Positions 9,483 through 33,805 of a DNA stretch of 33,805 bases are shown piece after piece. Source of the stretch: Clostridiales bacterium (GTDB lineage Bacteria > Bacillota > Clostridia > Oscillospirales > Butyricicoccaceae); NCBI GenBank assembly GCA_022775385.1, contig JALFIV010000036.1, positions 1 to 33,805 of the forward strand. Direction: 5' to 3'. The position numbers and the translations under genes were made by a program. How positions within the stretch are numbered: the first letter of the stretch is position 1; every line of letters begins with the position of its first letter. The notes beneath the pieces are model-generated. The model was given only the letters and a program-made list of their open reading frames with translations, searched no databases and was not told the origin of the DNA.

Positions 9483-10270
9483 AGCGAGCGATGGAGGAAA
9501 AGCTGGAGTGGATCCGCTCTCCCAGACGTCCGAATGTGGATGACATCATCGCCGGCGTGTTTTCCGATTTTATAGAGCTGCACGGAGACCGTCTGTACGG
9601 CGAGGATCACGCGATGTGCGCGGGAATCGCCCGACTGGGAGATATTCCGGTGACGGTACTCGGTCAGCGGCGCGGACACTCCACGCAGGAGAACATCGAG
9701 GCGAATTTTGCCATGGCGCATCCGGAGGGATACCGCAAGGCGCTCCGGCTCGCGCATCAGGCGGAGAAGTTCGGACGTCCGATTGTCTGCATTGTCGACA
9801 CACCGGGCGCGTTCTGCGGCGTTGAGGCCGAGGAGCGCGGTCAGGGCGAGGCGATTGCCCGATGTCTGTACGAGTTCATGCAGCTCAAAACACCGGTTAT
9901 CTCGATTGTGACCGGTGAGGGCGGCTCCGGCGGCGCACTGGCGCTGGCGGTTGCCAATGAGGTCTACATGCTGACGGATGCGATCTACTCGGTCATCTCG
10001 CCGCGCGGCTGTGCGAGCATCCTGTGGAAGGATGCCGCACGCGAAATCGAGGCGGCGGAGGCGCTCAAGATCACTGCACAGGATATGCTGGGATTTGGCC
10101 TGATCGACGGCATTATCGAGGATTCCCGACGGGATTCCGTGCTGTACCGTCACATCAAGTCGACGCTGACCGATGCGGTAAACCGCCTGTCACAACTGTT
10201 CGGCGAACAGCTGGCGCAGACACGGTATGAGAAATTCCGTTCCTACGGAGTTTTTGAAGAACATATATAA
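9479..10270 (+). CDS. accA: Acetyl-CoA carboxylase carboxyltransferase subunit alpha
   Basis: Partner of AccD in the alpha2-beta2 carboxyltransferase, 263 residues. The family motifs [35 protein letters not shown] and [11 protein letters not shown] appear in order. It is shorter than the roughly 320-residue proteobacterial AccA because the N-terminal helical part is reduced, as is common in Clostridia and Streptococcus. A strong AAAGGAGGT (9462-9470) lies 8 nt before the ATG. acpP follows after 25 bp. Confidence 0.96.
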
Positions 10271-10831: not shown

Positions 10832-12898
10832 ATGAAAGAAAACTGTTTTACGAACCGGGAACTGTCATGGCTGCAGTTCAATGAGCGCGTACTGAATGAG
10901 GCGGGAAATGACCGCGTTCCCCTGGCGGAGCGTCTGTCGTTCGCGTCGATTTATCAGTCCAATCTGGATGAGTTCTTCATGGTTCGTGTCGGCACCTTGA
11001 TGGTGCAGATGCAGTCGGATGAAGATATCCGTGAAAACAAGACCGGTATGACCAGCAAGGAGCAGGTTTCCGCCATTTTGGAGCGTGTTGCCGAGCTGGA
11101 GAAAAAGAAGGGGAAGATTTACGAACAGCTGATGGGTGAGCTGGAGCCGCACGGCATCCGTATCATCAATTTCAACCGCCTGTCCAACGAGGAGGGCGCA
11201 CTGCTGGAAGCGTATTTTGATTCCAATATCGCGCCGTTCCTGTCTCCGATGATCGTCAGCAAACAGCAGCCGTTCCCGTTTTTGAACAACAAGGAGCTGT
11301 ATGCGCTGGTACTGCTCGAGACCAAAAACGGAAAATCCAAGATCGGTATCGTCCCGTGTGCCAACGGTGTATTCAAGCGTCTGATCGAGATTCCATCCCG
11401 TCCGGGCACCTTTATGCTGGGCGAGGAGCTGATTCTGCACTTTGTCTCCAAGCTGTATCCCAAGTATGCGGTCAAGGCAAAGTCCATCATGCGCGTCACG
11501 CGCAACGCCGATATCGACGAACAGGATGTCTACGATGAGGATATGGATTACCGCGATATCATGGAGCATCTGATCAAGCAGAGAACGCGCCTGAGTCCGG
11601 TCCGTCTGGAGCTCACCCGCGATATCAGCAAGAAGGCGAGAAAACAGCTGGCGAAATATTTGGGTGTCAAGCTCGAACATATCATCCGCGTGGACACCCC
11701 GCTGGATCTGTCCTTTGTGTTCCAGCTTCAGAACTATCTGCATGGAAAGCCCGAACTGTTTTATGAAAAGCTCACGCCGCGCATGACGCCGGCGCTCAAT
11801 CTCAAGGAGAGTATTCTCGAACAGATTTCGCAGAAGGATGTTCTGCTGTCCTATCCGTTTGAGAGTATGAAGCCGTTCCTGCGCATGCTGCATGAGGCGG
11901 CGGAGGACGACTCGGTTGTCTCCATCAAGATGACGCTGTACCGCGTTGCGGACAAGAGCAAGATCATCGACGCACTGGTTGAGGCGGCAGAGAACGGCAA
12001 GGAAGTCGTTGTTCTGGTTGAGCTGCGCGCGCGGTTTGACGAGGCAAACAACATCGAGATGTCCCGCCGTCTGGAGGAGGCAGGCTGTCAGATCATCTAC
12101 GGTCTGGGGCAGTACAAGGTGCACTCCAAGCTGTGCCTGATCACCAGAAAGACTGAGGACGGCCGTTCGTGCTACATCACGCAGATCGGAACCGGCAACT
12201 ATAACGAAAAGACCTCCCGTCTGTACACCGACCTGTCGCTCATGACGGCGAATCAGGAAATCGGCGCGGAGGCGGCAAAGGTATTCCAGTCGCTCATGAT
12301 GGGTGAGACCGTCGAGCAGATGAACTGTCTGCTCGTCGCACCGAAGTGCCTGCAGAACAAGGTGCTCGACATGATGAACGAGGAGATTGCCCGCGCAAAG
12401 AACGGAGAGGCGGCGTACATCGGCATCAAGATCAATTCTCTGACCGACAAGGTCATCATCCGCAAGCTGATTGAGGCGTCGCAGGCGGGCGTCAAGATCG
12501 AACTGATCGTCCGCGGCATCTGCTGTCTGGTGCCGGAGGTCAAGGGACTGACCGAGAATATCACGATTATCAGCATTGTCGGCCGATTCCTGGAGCACTC
12601 GCGCATCTACCGATTCGGTGTCGGAGACCGAGAAAAGATTTACATTGCGTCGGCGGACTTCATGACGCGCAATACCATCCGCCGTGTCGAAGTCGCGGCG
12701 CCGATCTACGATCCGGAAATCAAGAACCGCCTGCGGTATATCTTTGACACCTGCATGGCGGACGATGAGAAGGGCAAGCGCCAGACGAGCGACCGAAGCT
12801 ATGTCGACCGCCGTTTGGGTGAGAACCGTCTGAACTCGCAGGAGGTATTCTACAAGGAGGCGTATCAGGCGGAGAGCACACCGGATACGACGGAATAA
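10832..12898 (+). CDS. ppk1: Polyphosphate kinase 1
   Basis: Reversibly polymerises the ATP gamma-phosphate into inorganic polyphosphate. The 688 residues show the full PPK1 plan: N-terminal domain starting NRELSWLQFNERVL, a middle domain, and two phospholipase-D-like C-terminal domains. The autophosphorylated His is His431 in KVHSKLCLI, and the second catalytic His is His589 in FLEHSRIYRF. NIEMSRRLEEAG and IGTGNYNEKTSRLYTDL are also typical. The ATG follows AAGGGGAGA. No exopolyphosphatase is adjacent, so polyphosphate breakdown must be encoded elsewhere. An rRNA methyltransferase gene starts 28 bp downstream and is probably co-transcribed. Confidence 0.97.
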   Translation: MKENCFTNRELSWLQFNERVLNEAGNDRVPLAERLSFASIYQSNLDEFFMVRVGTLMVQMQSDEDIRENKTGMTSKEQVSAILERVAELEKKKGKIYEQLMGELEPHGIRIINFNRLSNEEGALLEAYFDSNIAPFLSPMIVSKQQPFPFLNNKELYALVLLETKNGKSKIGIVPCANGVFKRLIEIPSRPGTFMLGEELILHFVSKLYPKYAVKAKSIMRVTRNADIDEQDVYDEDMDYRDIMEHLIKQRTRLSPVRLELTRDISKKARKQLAKYLGVKLEHIIRVDTPLDLSFVFQLQNYLHGKPELFYEKLTPRMTPALNLKESILEQISQKDVLLSYPFESMKPFLRMLHEAAEDDSVVSIKMTLYRVADKSKIIDALVEAAENGKEVVVLVELRARFDEANNIEMSRRLEEAGCQIIYGLGQYKVHSKLCLITRKTEDGRSCYITQIGTGNYNEKTSRLYTDLSLMTANQEIGAEAAKVFQSLMMGETVEQMNCLLVAPKCLQNKVLDMMNEEIARAKNGEAAYIGIKINSLTDKVIIRKLIEASQAGVKIELIVRGICCLVPEVKGLTENITIISIVGRFLEHSRIYRFGVGDREKIYIASADFMTRNTIRRVEVAAPIYDPEIKNRLRYIFDTCMADDEKGKRQTSDRSYVDRRLGENRLNSQEVFYKEAYQAESTPDTTE

Positions 12899-29056: not shown

Positions 29057-29099
29057 ATAAAAAAAGCTTTTGCCCCCATATCACTATGGGACAAAAGCT
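29057..29099 (-). terminator. Regulated terminator of the trp T-box leader
   Basis: Arms 29065-29080 and 29085-29099 form a roughly 14-bp stem with a 4-nt loop and one imperfection. On the minus strand it is followed by TTTTTTTATT. The right arm competes with the antiterminator that includes the T-box core. Confidence 0.9.
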
Positions 29100-29339
29100 G
29101 AAACTTCTGCGGTACCACCCAGATTGCCGTAAAAAACGACCGCTCACCGCACACAAACATGTGCGCCTCTTCGGTAACGGCGGAGGAACACCGTCAGCGC
29201 CTACTGCTCGGATAGAGGTTCAGGCTGCCCTCGCGAGTCCATTCGACCGGCTGTCCAACGCCGCGATTTCACCGTCCGCGGCTCTCTGAAGAAGGAACGA
29301 ATCCGATGTACTTCTCTCGTTCACAGGTTTTTCTATTTC
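29060..29339 (-). promoter_or_regulatory. T-box riboswitch, tryptophan-specific (UGG specifier)
   Basis: The minus strand carries the conserved T-box core GGGTGGTACCGC (29109-29120), whose TGGT bulge pairs with the free tRNA acceptor end. Stem I features precede it: CAGAGAGCC and GGTGAAA in the upper stem. In the specifier region GAA-TGG-AC, the codon TGG for tryptophan is at 29239-29241. The core is followed by a terminator hairpin, AGCTTTTG/CAAAAGCT arms at 29065-29099, with a run of seven Ts. Uncharged tRNA-Trp should favour the antiterminator and allow transcription of trpE onward; charged tRNA should cause termination. Confidence 0.95.
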
Positions 29340-29709: not shown

Positions 29710-29743
29710 CCGTGTATGCTGCGGTCCCGCATAGGCGCACCGG
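29710..29743 (+). promoter_or_regulatory. Hairpin in the long glgP leader
   Basis: An inner stem TATGC/GCATA (29715-29719, 29729-29733) and an outer stem CCGTG/CACCGG (29710-29714, 29738-29743, one bulge) can form a two-part hairpin about 50 nt before the start codon. It matches no known riboswitch class that I recognise. Confidence 0.35.
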
Positions 29744-29790
29744 TTGATGACACACACATATACCAATACAGAAAGGTGGAATTTATTCGA

Positions 29791-32187
29791 ATGGCGAAAC
29801 AGCTGAATTTGGATAATCTGATGGACAGCATCTGCCTTTACCTCAAGAGTGACCGGAGAAAGAATCTCGACGAGGCAAATGCGCAGGATCTGCACCATGC
29901 ACTGTCGAAGGCACTGATGGCACGCATTGCGGACGATTGGAAGGAGAGCCTGGCTCTCCATGACACTTCCCGTCATGCATACTATATGTCCGCTGAATTC
30001 CTGATCGGACGTGCAATTTACAACAATCTGGTATGTCTCGGCATTTATGATGAGGTTGAGGCAATGTTCCAGGAGCACGGCCTGAGCCTGAGCATGCTGG
30101 AAGAAGTTGAGGACGCTTCGCTGGGCAACGGCGGTCTTGGCCGTCTGGCAGCCTGCTTCCTGGACTCTGCGGCAACACAGGATCTCCCGCTCGACGGCTA
30201 CGGCATCCGCTACCGCTACGGCCTGTTCAAGCAGTACATTCAGGACGGTTTCCAGAAGGAGACCGCCGACGACTGGACCCGCTTCGGCGATCCGTGGAGC
30301 ATCCGTTCCGAGTCGGATTCTGTTCTGGTTAAGTTCGGCGATCAGGCCGTCCGTGCCGTTCCGTACGACATTCCGATTATCGGTTACAAGACCAAGAACA
30401 TCGGCAACCTGCGTCTGTGGCAGGCAGAGTCGATCGATTCGTTCGACTTCAACGAGTTTAACGAGCAGCACTATGATGCTTCCGTCCGTGAGAAGAACCG
30501 CGCAGAGGACATTTCCCGCGTTCTGTATCCGAACGATTCCACCGACGAGGGTAAGAAGCTGCGTCTGAAGCAGCAGTACTTCTTCTGCTCGGCATCTCTG
30601 CAGGATATCATCCGCAAGTACAAGAAGGTACACGGCAATGATTTCAGCCGTTTTGCTGATTTCAACGCCATCCAGCTGAACGATACCCATCCGGTTATCT
30701 CGATTCCGGAGCTGGTTCGCCTGCTGACCACCTACGAGGGTGTTGAGTTCAGACAGGCAGTCAAGATCGCGCAGAAGACCTTTGCATACACCAACCACAC
30801 CGTCCTTCCGGAGGCGCTGGAGAAGTGGAGCAAGCACATCATGCAGGCGGTCGTTCCGGATGTTTACAACATCATCGAGCGCATCAACAACATGTTCATT
30901 GATGAGCTGTATCACATGAATCGTTCTCCGGACTTCATCCAGAGCGTTCAGATCATCAAGCACGACCAGATCCACATGGCAAATCTGGCGATGTACGGTT
31001 CCAGCTATGTCAACGGCGTTGCTGCGATCCACTCTGACATCCTCAAGAAGGTCACGCTGAACAGCTTCTACCAGATCTGGCCGGAGCGCTTCCAGAACAA
31101 GACCAACGGCGTCACTCCGAGACGTTGGATCGCGATGAACAACCGCGAGCTGTCCGCTCTGCTGACCCGTCTGCTGGGCTCGGACGAGTGGGTCACCGAC
31201 CTGTCCAAGCTCAAGGAGCTGGAGAAGTATGCAGACGACAAGGCTGTTCTGGAAGAGTTCATGGAGATCAAGCATCAGAAGAAGCATCAGCTGGGTATGT
31301 TCATGCTCAAGCATGACGGCACCGCGCCGATCAAGAACTCGATGTATGATATCCAGATCAAGCGTCTGCACGAGTACAAGAGACAGCTGCTGAACGCGCT
31401 GTCCATCCTGTATATCTACTTCGGACTGAAGGACGGCTCCATTCAGAACTTCCATCCGACCACCTTCATCTTCGGTGCAAAGGCAGCGCCGGGCTACCGC
31501 CGCGCAAAGGGCATCATCAAGCTGATCAACGAGATCGCCCGCGTCATCGAGGAGGACGGTCAGGTCCGCGACAAGATCCGCGTCATCTTCGTCTCCAACT
31601 ACAACGTATCCTACGCAGAGAAGCTGGTTGCAGCTGCTGACGTTTCCGAGCAGATCTCCATGGCAGGCAAGGAAGCATCCGGTACCGGCAACATGAAGTT
31701 CATGATGAACGGCGCTGTTACGCTGGGTACGCTGGACGGCGCAAACGTTGAGATCTTTGAGGAGGCCGGCGAGGAGAACAACTACCGCTTCGGCGGCACG
31801 GTTGAGGAGCTCGACTATCAGGAGCACCACGACTACATCCCGTACAATATCTACAACGGAGATCCGAAGATCAAGCGCGTTCTCGAAGCGCTGGTCAATG
31901 GTATGCTGAACGACAACGGAACCGGTATGTTCCGCGAGCTGTATGATTCCCTCATCCACAAGGTTGACTGGGCACAGATCCATCCGGACCAGTACTTCCT
32001 GATGTATGACTTCAAGAGCTATGTCGATGCAAAGCTGCGCTGCAACCGCGATTACAGCGAGGATAAGTATGCATTTGCAAAGAAGTGCTGGATCAACATC
32101 TGTAATTCCGGCAAGTTCTCGTCCGACAGAACCATCCGCGATTACGCGAACGAAATCTGGCACATTGACCCGATTGAGTTCGAATAA
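29791..32187 (+). CDS. glgP: Glycogen/starch alpha-glucan phosphorylase
   Basis: PLP enzyme of 798 residues that releases glucose 1-phosphate from the ends of alpha-1,4-glucans. Family motifs occur in order: YMSAEFLIGR, LGNGGLGRLAACFLDS, YRYGLFKQ, FNAIQLNDTHP, TNHTVLPEALE, NKTNGVTPRRW and KRLHEYKRQLLN. The PLP lysine is Lys636 in EASGTGNMKFMMNG. The ATG at 29791 is chosen because AAAGGTGG precedes it; an upstream in-frame start at 29716 lacks one. Codon use is very biased to C-ending codons, suggesting high expression. No other glycogen genes are adjacent. Its own promoter, an upstream cre-like site and a terminator make it a single-gene unit. Confidence 0.97.
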   Translation: MAKQLNLDNLMDSICLYLKSDRRKNLDEANAQDLHHALSKALMARIADDWKESLALHDTSRHAYYMSAEFLIGRAIYNNLVCLGIYDEVEAMFQEHGLSLSMLEEVEDASLGNGGLGRLAACFLDSAATQDLPLDGYGIRYRYGLFKQYIQDGFQKETADDWTRFGDPWSIRSESDSVLVKFGDQAVRAVPYDIPIIGYKTKNIGNLRLWQAESIDSFDFNEFNEQHYDASVREKNRAEDISRVLYPNDSTDEGKKLRLKQQYFFCSASLQDIIRKYKKVHGNDFSRFADFNAIQLNDTHPVISIPELVRLLTTYEGVEFRQAVKIAQKTFAYTNHTVLPEALEKWSKHIMQAVVPDVYNIIERINNMFIDELYHMNRSPDFIQSVQIIKHDQIHMANLAMYGSSYVNGVAAIHSDILKKVTLNSFYQIWPERFQNKTNGVTPRRWIAMNNRELSALLTRLLGSDEWVTDLSKLKELEKYADDKAVLEEFMEIKHQKKHQLGMFMLKHDGTAPIKNSMYDIQIKRLHEYKRQLLNALSILYIYFGLKDGSIQNFHPTTFIFGAKAAPGYRRAKGIIKLINEIARVIEEDGQVRDKIRVIFVSNYNVSYAEKLVAAADVSEQISMAGKEASGTGNMKFMMNGAVTLGTLDGANVEIFEEAGEENNYRFGGTVEELDYQEHHDYIPYNIYNGDPKIKRVLEALVNGMLNDNGTGMFRELYDSLIHKVDWAQIHPDQYFLMYDFKSYVDAKLRCNRDYSEDKYAFAKKCWINICNSGKFSSDRTIRDYANEIWHIDPIEFE

Positions 32188-32301: not shown

Positions 32302-33363
32302 ATGGATAATAGTGAATCACAACAGAAGCCGCTGAGAAAGCGGATTGATGCCATCGACGCCTGCAAGCTGATTGCGGCACTGTTTGTCGTCGGCATTCAT
32401 ACCGCTCCGCTGGACTCGCTGAGTGAATCGGCGAATTTCACCCTGTTCGAGTGCTTTTCCCGATTCGCCGTTCCGTTTTATTTTGCAAGCTCGGCATTCT
32501 TTTTCTTCCGCGGCGGCGTGGATGAAAAGAAGCTCTGGCACTATGAGCGCCGGATGGGAATTCTGTATGGAATCTGGTTTTTGATCGCGTTTCCGGTCAC
32601 CTTTGCCCGGAAATACTGGGTGCTGTTTACACAGCATGAGCTTCCGGTCGCGATCTGGAGAACCGTCCGCGGATTCCTGTTTGCATCCAGCTTCCGCGGC
32701 TCGTGGTTTTTGTCCGGATCCATGTTCTGTGCACTGGTCATCTTCTATCTGAGCAAAAAACTCAAAACCAAGCACATTATGTGGATCTGCAGTGCGTCTT
32801 ATGTGTTCTGCGTGCTGTGCAGTACGTACGGCAATCTGATTTACCGGATCGGTCTGGGGGAGCAGTATGAGACGCTGCTGTTCTATTTCGCCCATCCGTA
32901 TACCAGCATCATCACCGGTCTGCTGTACTTTGCCATCGGCAAGTATTTTGCCGAGCATGAGATGGAGGCATCCGCAAAGGATCCGAAAAAGTATTTCCTG
33001 CTCAGTGCGATTACCATGGCGGGAGTCATGCTGGAATACACAGTCGCACAGCGCATGGGCTGGGTGAATTCCACCGACTGCTGTTTTATGCTCATTCCGA
33101 ACGTGTACTGTCTGCTGACGTTTGCGCTGAGTTCCAGTATTCACCTGAAGCATGTCAAAGAGATCCGTGCAAGCGGCGTCATCGTGTTCTTTGCACATTT
33201 CAGTGTGCTGTATGCCTTCCAGATGATGGACAAGTATTTGGGACTTCACATCGACACGCTGACCCGGTATCTGCTGATTCTGCTGATCTCGTTCAGCTTT
33301 GCCCATTTTGTGCTTCGCATGGAGGACCGCAAACACTGGCGATGGATGCACTATCTGCATTGA
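32302..33363 (+). CDS. Membrane acyltransferase, family 3
   Basis: A 353-residue integral membrane protein with about ten hydrophobic segments, matching the acyltransferase-3 (OafA/WecH-like) family that moves acyl groups, often acetyl, onto sugars or lipids at the cell surface. The N-terminal family pattern is RIDAIDACKLIAALFVVGIHTAP, shown here at residues 14-36, with the likely catalytic His33. An Arg-rich inner loop (YERRMG) follows. The ATG at 32302 with a weak AGG upstream gives a natural N-terminus; an earlier frame start overlaps the glgP terminator. No polysaccharide or cell-wall genes are beside it, so the substrate is unknown. It is the last gene before an apparent mobile-element junction. 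Confidence 0.85.
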   Translation: MDNSESQQKPLRKRIDAIDACKLIAALFVVGIHTAPLDSLSESANFTLFECFSRFAVPFYFASSAFFFFRGGVDEKKLWHYERRMGILYGIWFLIAFPVTFARKYWVLFTQHELPVAIWRTVRGFLFASSFRGSWFLSGSMFCALVIFYLSKKLKTKHIMWICSASYVFCVLCSTYGNLIYRIGLGEQYETLLFYFAHPYTSIITGLLYFAIGKYFAEHEMEASAKDPKKYFLLSAITMAGVMLEYTVAQRMGWVNSTDCCFMLIPNVYCLLTFALSSSIHLKHVKEIRASGVIVFFAHFSVLYAFQMMDKYLGLHIDTLTRYLLILLISFSFAHFVLRMEDRKHWRWMHYLH

Positions 33364-33366
33364 TGG

Positions 33367-33397
33367 AAAACAAAAAGACCTGCATCAGAGAGCGGTC
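33367..33397 (-). terminator. Minus-strand hairpin with U-tract after the acyltransferase
   Basis: GACC-GC pairs with GC-A-GGTC (33377-33383 and 33392-33397, one bulge). On the minus strand it is followed by TTTTTGTTTT. No gene on the minus strand reaches it inside the window, so it may be the leftover terminator of a gene displaced by an insertion. Confidence 0.45.
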
Positions 33398-33414
33398 CAA
33401 TAAAACAGTATAAC

Positions 33415-33460
33415 AAAACCGGGAAGCAACATGATTTAGGTCGTGTTACTTCCCGGTTTT
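33415..33460. terminator. Bidirectional terminator downstream of the acyltransferase
   Basis: AAAACCGGGAAG (33415-33426) pairs perfectly with CTTCCCGGTTTT (33449-33460). The inner bases can extend the stem with a few mismatches. Each arm ends in a U-tract for its own strand. Confidence 0.85.
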
Positions 33461-33474
33461 CATAATAGCAGGGT

Positions 33475-33554
33475 TTGGGGAAGGCACTCCCCAACAAGAT
33501 TCCATGAGGGCAAAATGAGTAATAGGCGAAATTTGGACCCATGGCAGAATCTTG
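33475..33554. repeat. Stacked inverted repeats ahead of the RHH gene
   Basis: TTGGGGA/TCCCCAA (33475-33481, 33488-33494) is a 7-bp hairpin. It is followed at once by CAAGATTC-CATG (33495-33506), which pairs with CATG and GAATCTTG (33540-33543, 33547-33554). No U-tract follows. Such adjacent repeats just before a ribbon-helix-helix gene are reminiscent of an origin of transfer or the end of a mobile element, but no nic site is recognised. Confidence 0.5.
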
Positions 33555-33570
33555 CTCTGTAATGACCGAA

Positions 33571-33599
33571 TTGATTTTTAGAGCTATTTGCGCTACACT
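33571..33599 (+). promoter_or_regulatory. Promoter of the RHH gene
   Basis: TTGATT (33571-33576), 17 bp, then TACACT (33594-33599). The predicted start near 33606 lies about 37 nt before the start codon. Confidence 0.65.
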
Positions 33600-33642
33600 A
33601 TTACACAGGTACACAAGTAGATGTGTTGTGAGGTATAAGATT

Positions 33643-33805
33643 ATGGCTGAAAGAAATATGGTAAATCTTACGATTACAATGACAAGAGAAGAACGTAAGG
33701 CTTTAAAGCAGATTGCGCTCGATAAAGATATTACTGTTTCTGCTTTAATCCGCTTATGGTTGCAGGAACATCGGGAAGATGAGGTGGAAAATAATGGCCA
33801 GAAAT
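33643..33805 (+). CDS. Ribbon-helix-helix DNA-binding protein, cut by the window end
   Basis: The frame is open from ATG 33643 to the end of the window, giving 54 residues. The start MAERNMVNLTITMTREERK is a beta-strand followed by helices (KALKQIALDKDITVSALIR), the Arc/MetJ/CopG ribbon-helix-helix pattern. GAGGT lies 9 nt upstream. Such small proteins are frequent in integrative conjugative elements and plasmids as relaxosome helpers or regulators. The AT-rich codon use differs sharply from every gene to its left, indicating acquired DNA. It is either near its end or continues past the window. Confidence 0.75.
   Translation, partial: MAERNMVNLTITMTREERKALKQIALDKDITVSALIRLWLQEHREDEVENNGQK
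33794..33805 (+). CDS. Possible start of a further gene
   Basis: ATGGCCAGAAAT begins in a different frame from the RHH gene, with GAGGTGG 6 nt upstream. Only four codons are visible, so neither its identity nor its reality can be judged; an overlap with the RHH gene end is typical of mobile-element operons. Confidence 0.35.

What the first reader, a model, noticed from the sequence alone, without database searches (positions are those of the whole stretch)
33364..33805. Junction to a probable integrative or mobilizable element
After the acyltransferase there are back-to-back terminators, then stacked inverted repeats, a separate promoter and an AT-rich ribbon-helix-helix gene followed by another likely start codon. 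Composition changes abruptly. The repeats upstream of an RHH gene would suit an origin of transfer with a relaxosome helper, or an element end.
Basis: partly seen in the sequence, partly recalled or inferred. Interest (0 to 1): 0.5.

Follow-up and report, generated by a model that had tools for sequence, protein, structure and literature searches.

The report
Helper-dependent restriction transposon in a terminator
The window ends inside a small mobile DNA element that sits in the loop of a gene terminator, carries a restriction-modification system and a conjugation start site, and seems to have lost its own movement genes, so it probably travels with the enzymes of a larger relative.

Summary
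The junction is real and is the left end of a small mobile element. It contains: half of a chromosomal bidirectional terminator (33372-33385); an element end identical over 20 bp to that of an autonomous TnpX-type integrative mobilizable element (IME) in another genome (33392-33411); a hairpin terminator (33415-33460); a 92-bp oriT (33467-33558); and the RHH gene heading a restriction-modification operon (33643 on). The right end lies on contig C89 of the same genome. A same-genus genome (G008) has the natural empty site: one intact terminator between the same two genes. No recombinase or relaxase is seen in the predicted ~2.8-kb element, and the 92%-complete genome shows no PF03432 relaxase and no TnpX-like recombinase. 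The end-oriT fusion recurs in five other contigs; the two with both ends carry other restriction genes (1.36 and 2.6 kb). Of 26 element ends tested, 24 lie in terminator-like sites. Best reading: a recombinase-less, relaxase-less, oriT-bearing transposon moved in trans by autonomous IMEs that target terminator loops. The parts are known kinds; the combination and the terminator target look new. Movement is inferred, not shown.

The parts
32302..33363 (+). Chromosomal acyltransferase gene (Acyl_transf_3), left neighbour of the insertion
   Evidence: Pfam PF01757; 82% identical orthologue in G008
33372..33385 (.). Left half (AAAAAGACCTGCAT) of the chromosomal bidirectional terminator split by the element; the other half is on contig C89
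   Evidence: 14-nt exact complement between the two flanks; intact terminator in G008
33386..33391 (.). Presumed crossover zone; exact dinucleotide not resolved
   Evidence: inference from the LE and RE flanks of four elements
33392..33411 (+). Left element end (LE) GCGGTCCAATAAAACAGTAT, imperfect inverted repeat of the right end on C89
   Evidence: identical in autonomous element G046; only one LE and one RE exact core in G000
33415..33460 (.). Hairpin (probable bidirectional terminator) just inside the left end
   Evidence: -27.9 kcal/mol; 90.7% of cells paired and 2 pairs changed on both sides over six cassettes
33467..33558 (-). Origin of transfer (oriT): TTGGGGA/TCCCCAA repeat 33475-33494, CAAGATTC/GAATCTTG repeat 33495-33554, candidate nick motif CCCTG|C on the - strand (33468-33473; nick motif recalled, not tested)
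   Evidence: mobC beside it in 17 of 19 loci
33571..33599 (+). Candidate promoter TTGATT-17-TACACT of the cargo operon
   Evidence: same hexamers and spacing in L006 (read); below the scan threshold
33643..33805 (+). RHH protein gene (P0001), open at the contig end; probable regulator of the R-M operon
   Evidence: homologue heads the operon in L024
33794..33805 (+). Start of the next gene, expected EcoRI-type adenine methyltransferase (MARN...)
   Evidence: inferred from synteny with L024 and from the nuclease half on C89, 93% identical

Best explanation
The interval is the left end of a ~2.8-kb non-autonomous mobilizable transposon: LE, hairpin terminator, oriT, RHH regulator, EcoRI-type methyltransferase, GmrSD_N/HNH nuclease, RE. 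It is inserted in the loop of the bidirectional terminator shared by two convergent chromosomal genes. It encodes no recombinase or relaxase that we can see. Mechanism (inferred): an autonomous IME of the G046 type, with matching ends and a 96% identical oriT, supplies the TnpX-like serine recombinase that excises and circularizes it, and the MobC/relaxase pair that nicks its oriT; an ICE or conjugative plasmid supplies the pore. On arrival the recombinase inserts it into another terminator, probably reading the symmetric A/T tracts as a palindromic attB. The element's own hairpin next to LE replaces the broken terminator. Shown: both ends, the empty site, oriT homology and context, absence of mobility genes in the sequenced parts, recurrence with other cargo, and terminator-like targets. 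Inferred: the unsequenced middle (~1.6 kb), trans-mobilization, target recognition, terminator replacement, R-M activity.
For: Ends: the exact end core occurs once as LE (C122) and once as RE (C89) in G000; their flanks form one terminator. Empty site: G008 has acyltransferase, an intact hairpin (-23.1 kcal/mol), then the C89 sequence, 84% over 1424 nt. Cargo: the C89 gene is 93% identical to the C-terminus of the L024 nuclease; PADLOC MTase_II and REase_II for the L024 pair. oriT: 95.7% identical to the mobC-linked oriT of G046; mobC beside it in 17 of 19 family loci, the exceptions being the two LE-oriT fusions. Non-autonomy: no PF03432 relaxase; the only PF07508 recombinase is 20% identical to TnpX. 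Recurrence: five further contigs with the fusion, two with both ends and different restriction genes. Target: A-tract at 24 of 26 ends against 7% (all) or 14% (intergenic) background; 7 of 7 end pairs share an inverted arm of 10-16 nt.
Against: The middle is not assembled; methyltransferase presence and element length rest on synteny, and an L024 methyltransferase search of G000 found nothing. L048 has LE-oriT next to an EamA/LysR pair and no RE was found; L050 and L052 are cut by contig ends. The L048 case may be chromosomal context, so restriction cargo is shown for only three elements. The crossover dinucleotide is not the same in all pairs (L049 does not fit). Mismatched flank pairs share up to 13 nt because of the A-tracts. 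G000 itself has no visible helper, so movement is not expected there now. No transfer or excision was observed. No element was found in viral contigs.
Confidence: 0.8

Rival explanations
1. A decayed IME remnant (CIME): an autonomous element inserted here and then lost tnpX, relaxase and mobC in place; the ends and oriT are leftovers and it no longer moves.
For: The helper genes are missing exactly between LE and oriT, where they stand in G046; G408 (L077) shows what a decayed relative looks like, with an LE, an R-M gene and a half oriT; no helper was seen in G000.
Against: The same LE-hairpin-oriT fusion occurs in six contigs of different organisms with different neighbours and different terminators; the cassettes are 82-93% identical. 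Repeated independent decay to the same junction is unlikely.
Confidence: 0.15
2. The missing middle hides the mobility genes and this is an ordinary autonomous IME with a rearranged gene order.
For: About 1.6 kb or more between C122 and C89 is not assembled.
Against: Both borders of the gap are the syntenic R-M operon of L024. Complete relatives L049 (2.6 kb) and L051 (1.36 kb) have no such genes. No PF03432 relaxase or TnpX-like recombinase was found in G000.
Confidence: 0.04
3. The RHH protein is a relaxosome accessory that binds the adjacent repeats.
For: Adjacent to the oriT; a weak NikA-like match, E 0.0035, below the cut-off.
Against: In L024 the same RHH precedes the same R-M operon, and the match to the window there stops short of the oriT. 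A true mobC of another kind (PF21983/PF05713) reads the other way from this oriT in autonomous elements. A Ligilactobacillus plasmid has a MerR regulator in the same slot before methyltransferase and DUF262 genes.
Confidence: 0.05

Closest known systems
Tn4451/Tn4453/Tn6104-type mobilizable transposons (TnpX large serine recombinase, TnpV)
   Same: Related ends belong to elements that encode a large serine recombinase and TnpV; one relative has MobA/MobL as in Tn6104 (PMC3158075, passages read)
   Different: The window element has no tnpX, tnpV or mob gene in its sequenced parts; targets are terminator loops, whereas the review describes Tn4451 as of low specificity with a 2-bp core (PMC5704250, passages read)
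iOriT / MGI elements (integrative elements with an oriT but no relaxase)
   Same: oriT without relaxase, helper needed for transfer (PMC11389934 and PMC5704250, passages read)
   Different: The relaxase-less MGIs in the passages read, MTnSag1 and tISCpe8, encode their own transposase; here the integrase is missing as well
CIME (cis-mobilizable element)
   Same: Retains both ends, lost integration and transfer genes (definition in PMC5704250, passages read)
   Different: Keeps a conserved oriT and recurs in different sites with different cargo, so more than decay
MITE
   Same: Needs the recombinase of a relative acting on its ends (definition in PMC11389934, passages read)
   Different: Carries genes and an oriT; the helper is a serine recombinase IME rather than an IS

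Membership tests
TnpX-type IME (Tn4451-like) | Encodes a large serine recombinase | tested here: not met
   None in the sequenced ends; only one PF07508 protein in G000 and it is 20% identical to TnpX. The middle is unsequenced
TnpX-type IME (Tn4451-like) | Ends recognised by the family's recombinase | tested here: inconclusive
   LE 20/20 and RE 29/29 identical to autonomous G046; recognition itself not testable
TnpX-type IME (Tn4451-like) | 2-bp identical core at both ends | tested here: inconclusive
   CA fits G000 and L051, TT fits G046, L049 does not fit (read)
Canonical IME | Own relaxase gene | tested here: not met
   No PF03432 in G000; MobA/MobL family not searched there; middle unsequenced
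iOriT / MGI | oriT related to that of a helper, no relaxase | tested here: met
   oriT 95.7% identical to the mobC-linked oriT of G046; no mobC adjacent, no PF03432 relaxase
iOriT / MGI | Transfer by a helper shown | not testable with these tools
   needs mating experiments
CIME | attL and attR kept, integration and transfer genes lost | tested here: met
   the middle is unsequenced
CIME | Moves only in cis with a linked element | not testable with these tools
   recurrence in different sites argues for movement in trans
Type II restriction-modification cargo | Methyltransferase plus restriction nuclease genes | tested here: inconclusive
   Nuclease C-terminal half present; methyltransferase only its first codons in the window, inferred from L024

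The most novel reading that the evidence does not exclude
A lineage of recombinase-less and relaxase-less transposons that share one LE-hairpin-oriT cassette, swap restriction systems as cargo, insert into the loops of bidirectional terminators (restoring termination with their own hairpin), and spread among gut Clostridia by borrowing both the recombinase and the relaxase of one autonomous IME family.
Probability: 0.5. Interest if true: 0.75.

Novelty: new variant of a known kind. Interest (0 to 1): 0.62.

Why it matters
It would be the conjugative counterpart of a MITE: under 3 kb, no mobility gene, yet doubly helper-dependent and carrying antiviral cargo. Annotation pipelines that look for integrases and relaxases would miss such elements, so part of the movement of R-M systems may be unseen. 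The terminator-loop target explains how an element can insert between genes without harming expression, and gives a simple, testable attB rule for this recombinase family.

Tried and rejected
Direct repeats for the element: none found; the ends are inverted repeats. The plasmid collection had no match to the junction; viral contigs had none to LE or LE-oriT. The L024 methyltransferase was not found in G000, read as an assembly gap. Chance LE hits: of 16 places, five (L054, L057, L059, L063, L067) were dropped because they had mismatches, no LE-like interior and no tnpX. Of 8 RE places, G200 (L074) was left out of the flank test because LE and RE lie head to head with nothing between. An RHH-like ORF before EcoRI-type methyltransferases of viral contigs: 0 of 34 loci tested of 43 found, with a weak single-sequence search. 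mobC of L036: not found beside the oriT by motif; by eye an antisense frame looks like mobC about 0.5 kb away. Literature: searches listed no paper whose title or abstract start describes terminator-loop insertion by such elements (searches returned zero papers); PMC9345347 was seen only in a listing.

Full report
What was checked. The window is one whole contig, C122 of genome G000 (2.14 Mb, 142 contigs, 92% complete). The acyltransferase ends at 33363. Then come a half hairpin, a 20-bp inverted repeat, stacked repeats and an RHH frame that is open at the contig end. GC drops from 51% to 44% to 37%.

The element ends. A search of 99 relatives split the junction into pieces with different histories: a 92-bp block (33467-33558) at 80-96% identity in many genomes, a left piece around 33392-33411, and the RHH gene (77% DNA identity, G072). 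In G046 the left piece (20/20 identical) is the end of an element with this order: LE, TnpX-like serine recombinase (Resolvase, Recombinase, Zn ribbon, DUF4368), relaxase (PF03432), MobC, the 92-bp block, Type I R-M-like cargo (by eye), TnpV, RE. In G000 the exact end core occurs only twice: as LE on C122 and as RE on C89. The RE 29-mer is identical to that of G046.

The target. The LE flank AAAAAGACCTGCAT and the RE flank ATGCAGGTCTTTTTT are complementary arms. In G008, same genus, the acyltransferase is followed by an intact hairpin, AAAAGACCTGCAAGCTCGGTCGGCTTGCAGGTCTTTT (-23.1 kcal/mol on the folded stretch), and then by sequence 84% identical to the C89 flank over 1424 nt. This is the natural empty site. 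On C89 a 214-aa gene ends just outside the RE and converges with the acyltransferase. The acyltransferase was found in 2 of 12 genus genomes, G000 and G008. Over 26 ends of this element family (17 LE, 9 RE), 24 have an A4 run 14-24 nt outside the end core, against 7.3% of 24,000 random positions and 13.6% of 23,614 intergenic positions in the same loci. In 7 of 7 LE/RE pairs the flanks share an inverted arm of 10-16 nt; 42 mismatched pairs average 6.7 with a maximum of 13. An eighth pair, G393, fits by eye. The two failures of the A4 test are the L049 LE (three A) and G133a.

The oriT. Of 19 places in the family survey (87 genomes) that match the 92-bp block, 17 have a mobC frame starting close to its nick-side edge and reading away; the two without are the LE-oriT fusions, window and G051. 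In an earlier set mobC was found by motif in 12 of 13 loci. The repeat TTGGGGA/TCCCCAA followed by CCCTGC on the mobC-facing strand resembles MOBP nick regions; that resemblance is recalled, not tested.

The cargo. L024 has RHH (9541-9693), EcoRI-type methyltransferase (PF13651) and GmrSD_N/HNH nuclease in a row. The C89 fragment is 93% identical over 212 residues to the nuclease C-terminus. PADLOC calls the two L024 genes MTase_II (424 bits) and REase_II (519 bits). The plasmid pLa3_1 has regulator (MerR), methyltransferase and DUF262 genes in the same order. So the RHH is most likely the operon's regulator. Expected element length is about 2.8 kb: roughly 0.4 kb on C122, 0.8 kb on C89, about 1.6 kb missing.

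Non-autonomy and recurrence. G000 shows no PF03432 relaxase and one PF07508 recombinase, 20% identical to TnpX over 366 residues. MobA/MobL relaxases were not searched in G000. A scan of the species-representative collection for LE-gap-oriT found five contigs, of which L048 is the same contig as G051. L049 has both ends and holds an N6_N4 methyltransferase plus a 291-aa unknown gene; L051 has both ends (RE diverged) and only an Mrr-like nuclease. L050 and L052 are cut by contig ends; L048 borders EamA and LysR genes with no RE found. The six cassettes are 82-93% identical and share a hairpin inside LE with 90.7% of cells paired and 2 pairs changed on both sides (six sequences, modest support). 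Of 16 LE-pattern places in 394 genomes of the order, after dropping five chance matches, eight run into tnpX (one weakly), one (window) into oriT and two into neither.

Interpretation. One ancestor probably lost everything between LE hairpin and oriT, and its descendants have since moved and changed cargo. A G046-type IME has matching ends and a 96% identical oriT and so could supply both activities. Serine recombinases act on short near-palindromic sites (recalled); a bidirectional terminator with symmetric A and T tracts would be such a site. This last step is inference.

Known or new. IMEs without relaxase, CIMEs and TnpX elements are described (PMC5704250, PMC11389934, PMC3158075; passages read). 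I found no report of this combination or of terminator-loop targeting in the searches named under Tried and rejected; subscription papers are not in that library.

Noticed in passing
29084-29333 (-) and genes down to 23309: T-box leader upstream of an apparent trp operon: anthranilate synthase I, GATase, Glycos_transf_3, IGPS, PRAI, PALP; ordinary chromosome.
   Followed up: partly
29716-32187 (+) and 10832-12898 (+): Carbohydrate phosphorylase just left of the acyltransferase and a polyphosphate kinase further left.
   Followed up: no
L080:9168-19794: Complete autonomous element in G393 with the same ends, a TnpX-like recombinase and a MobA/MobL relaxase instead of MobC/PF03432, and a methyltransferase in its cargo: same recombination module, different transfer module.
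   Followed up: partly
L077:1501-4360: G408: LE in a terminator-like flank, a fused N6_Mtase/Methylase_S gene and half an oriT next to tRNA-like sequence; looks like a decayed relative.
   Followed up: partly
L074:1503-1535: G200: RE and LE cores head to head with only a few bases between them, like a solo-ends relic.
   Followed up: no
L049:2375-3250 (+): 291-aa gene next to the methyltransferase with no Pfam, NCBIfam or PADLOC match; candidate restriction enzyme.
   Followed up: no
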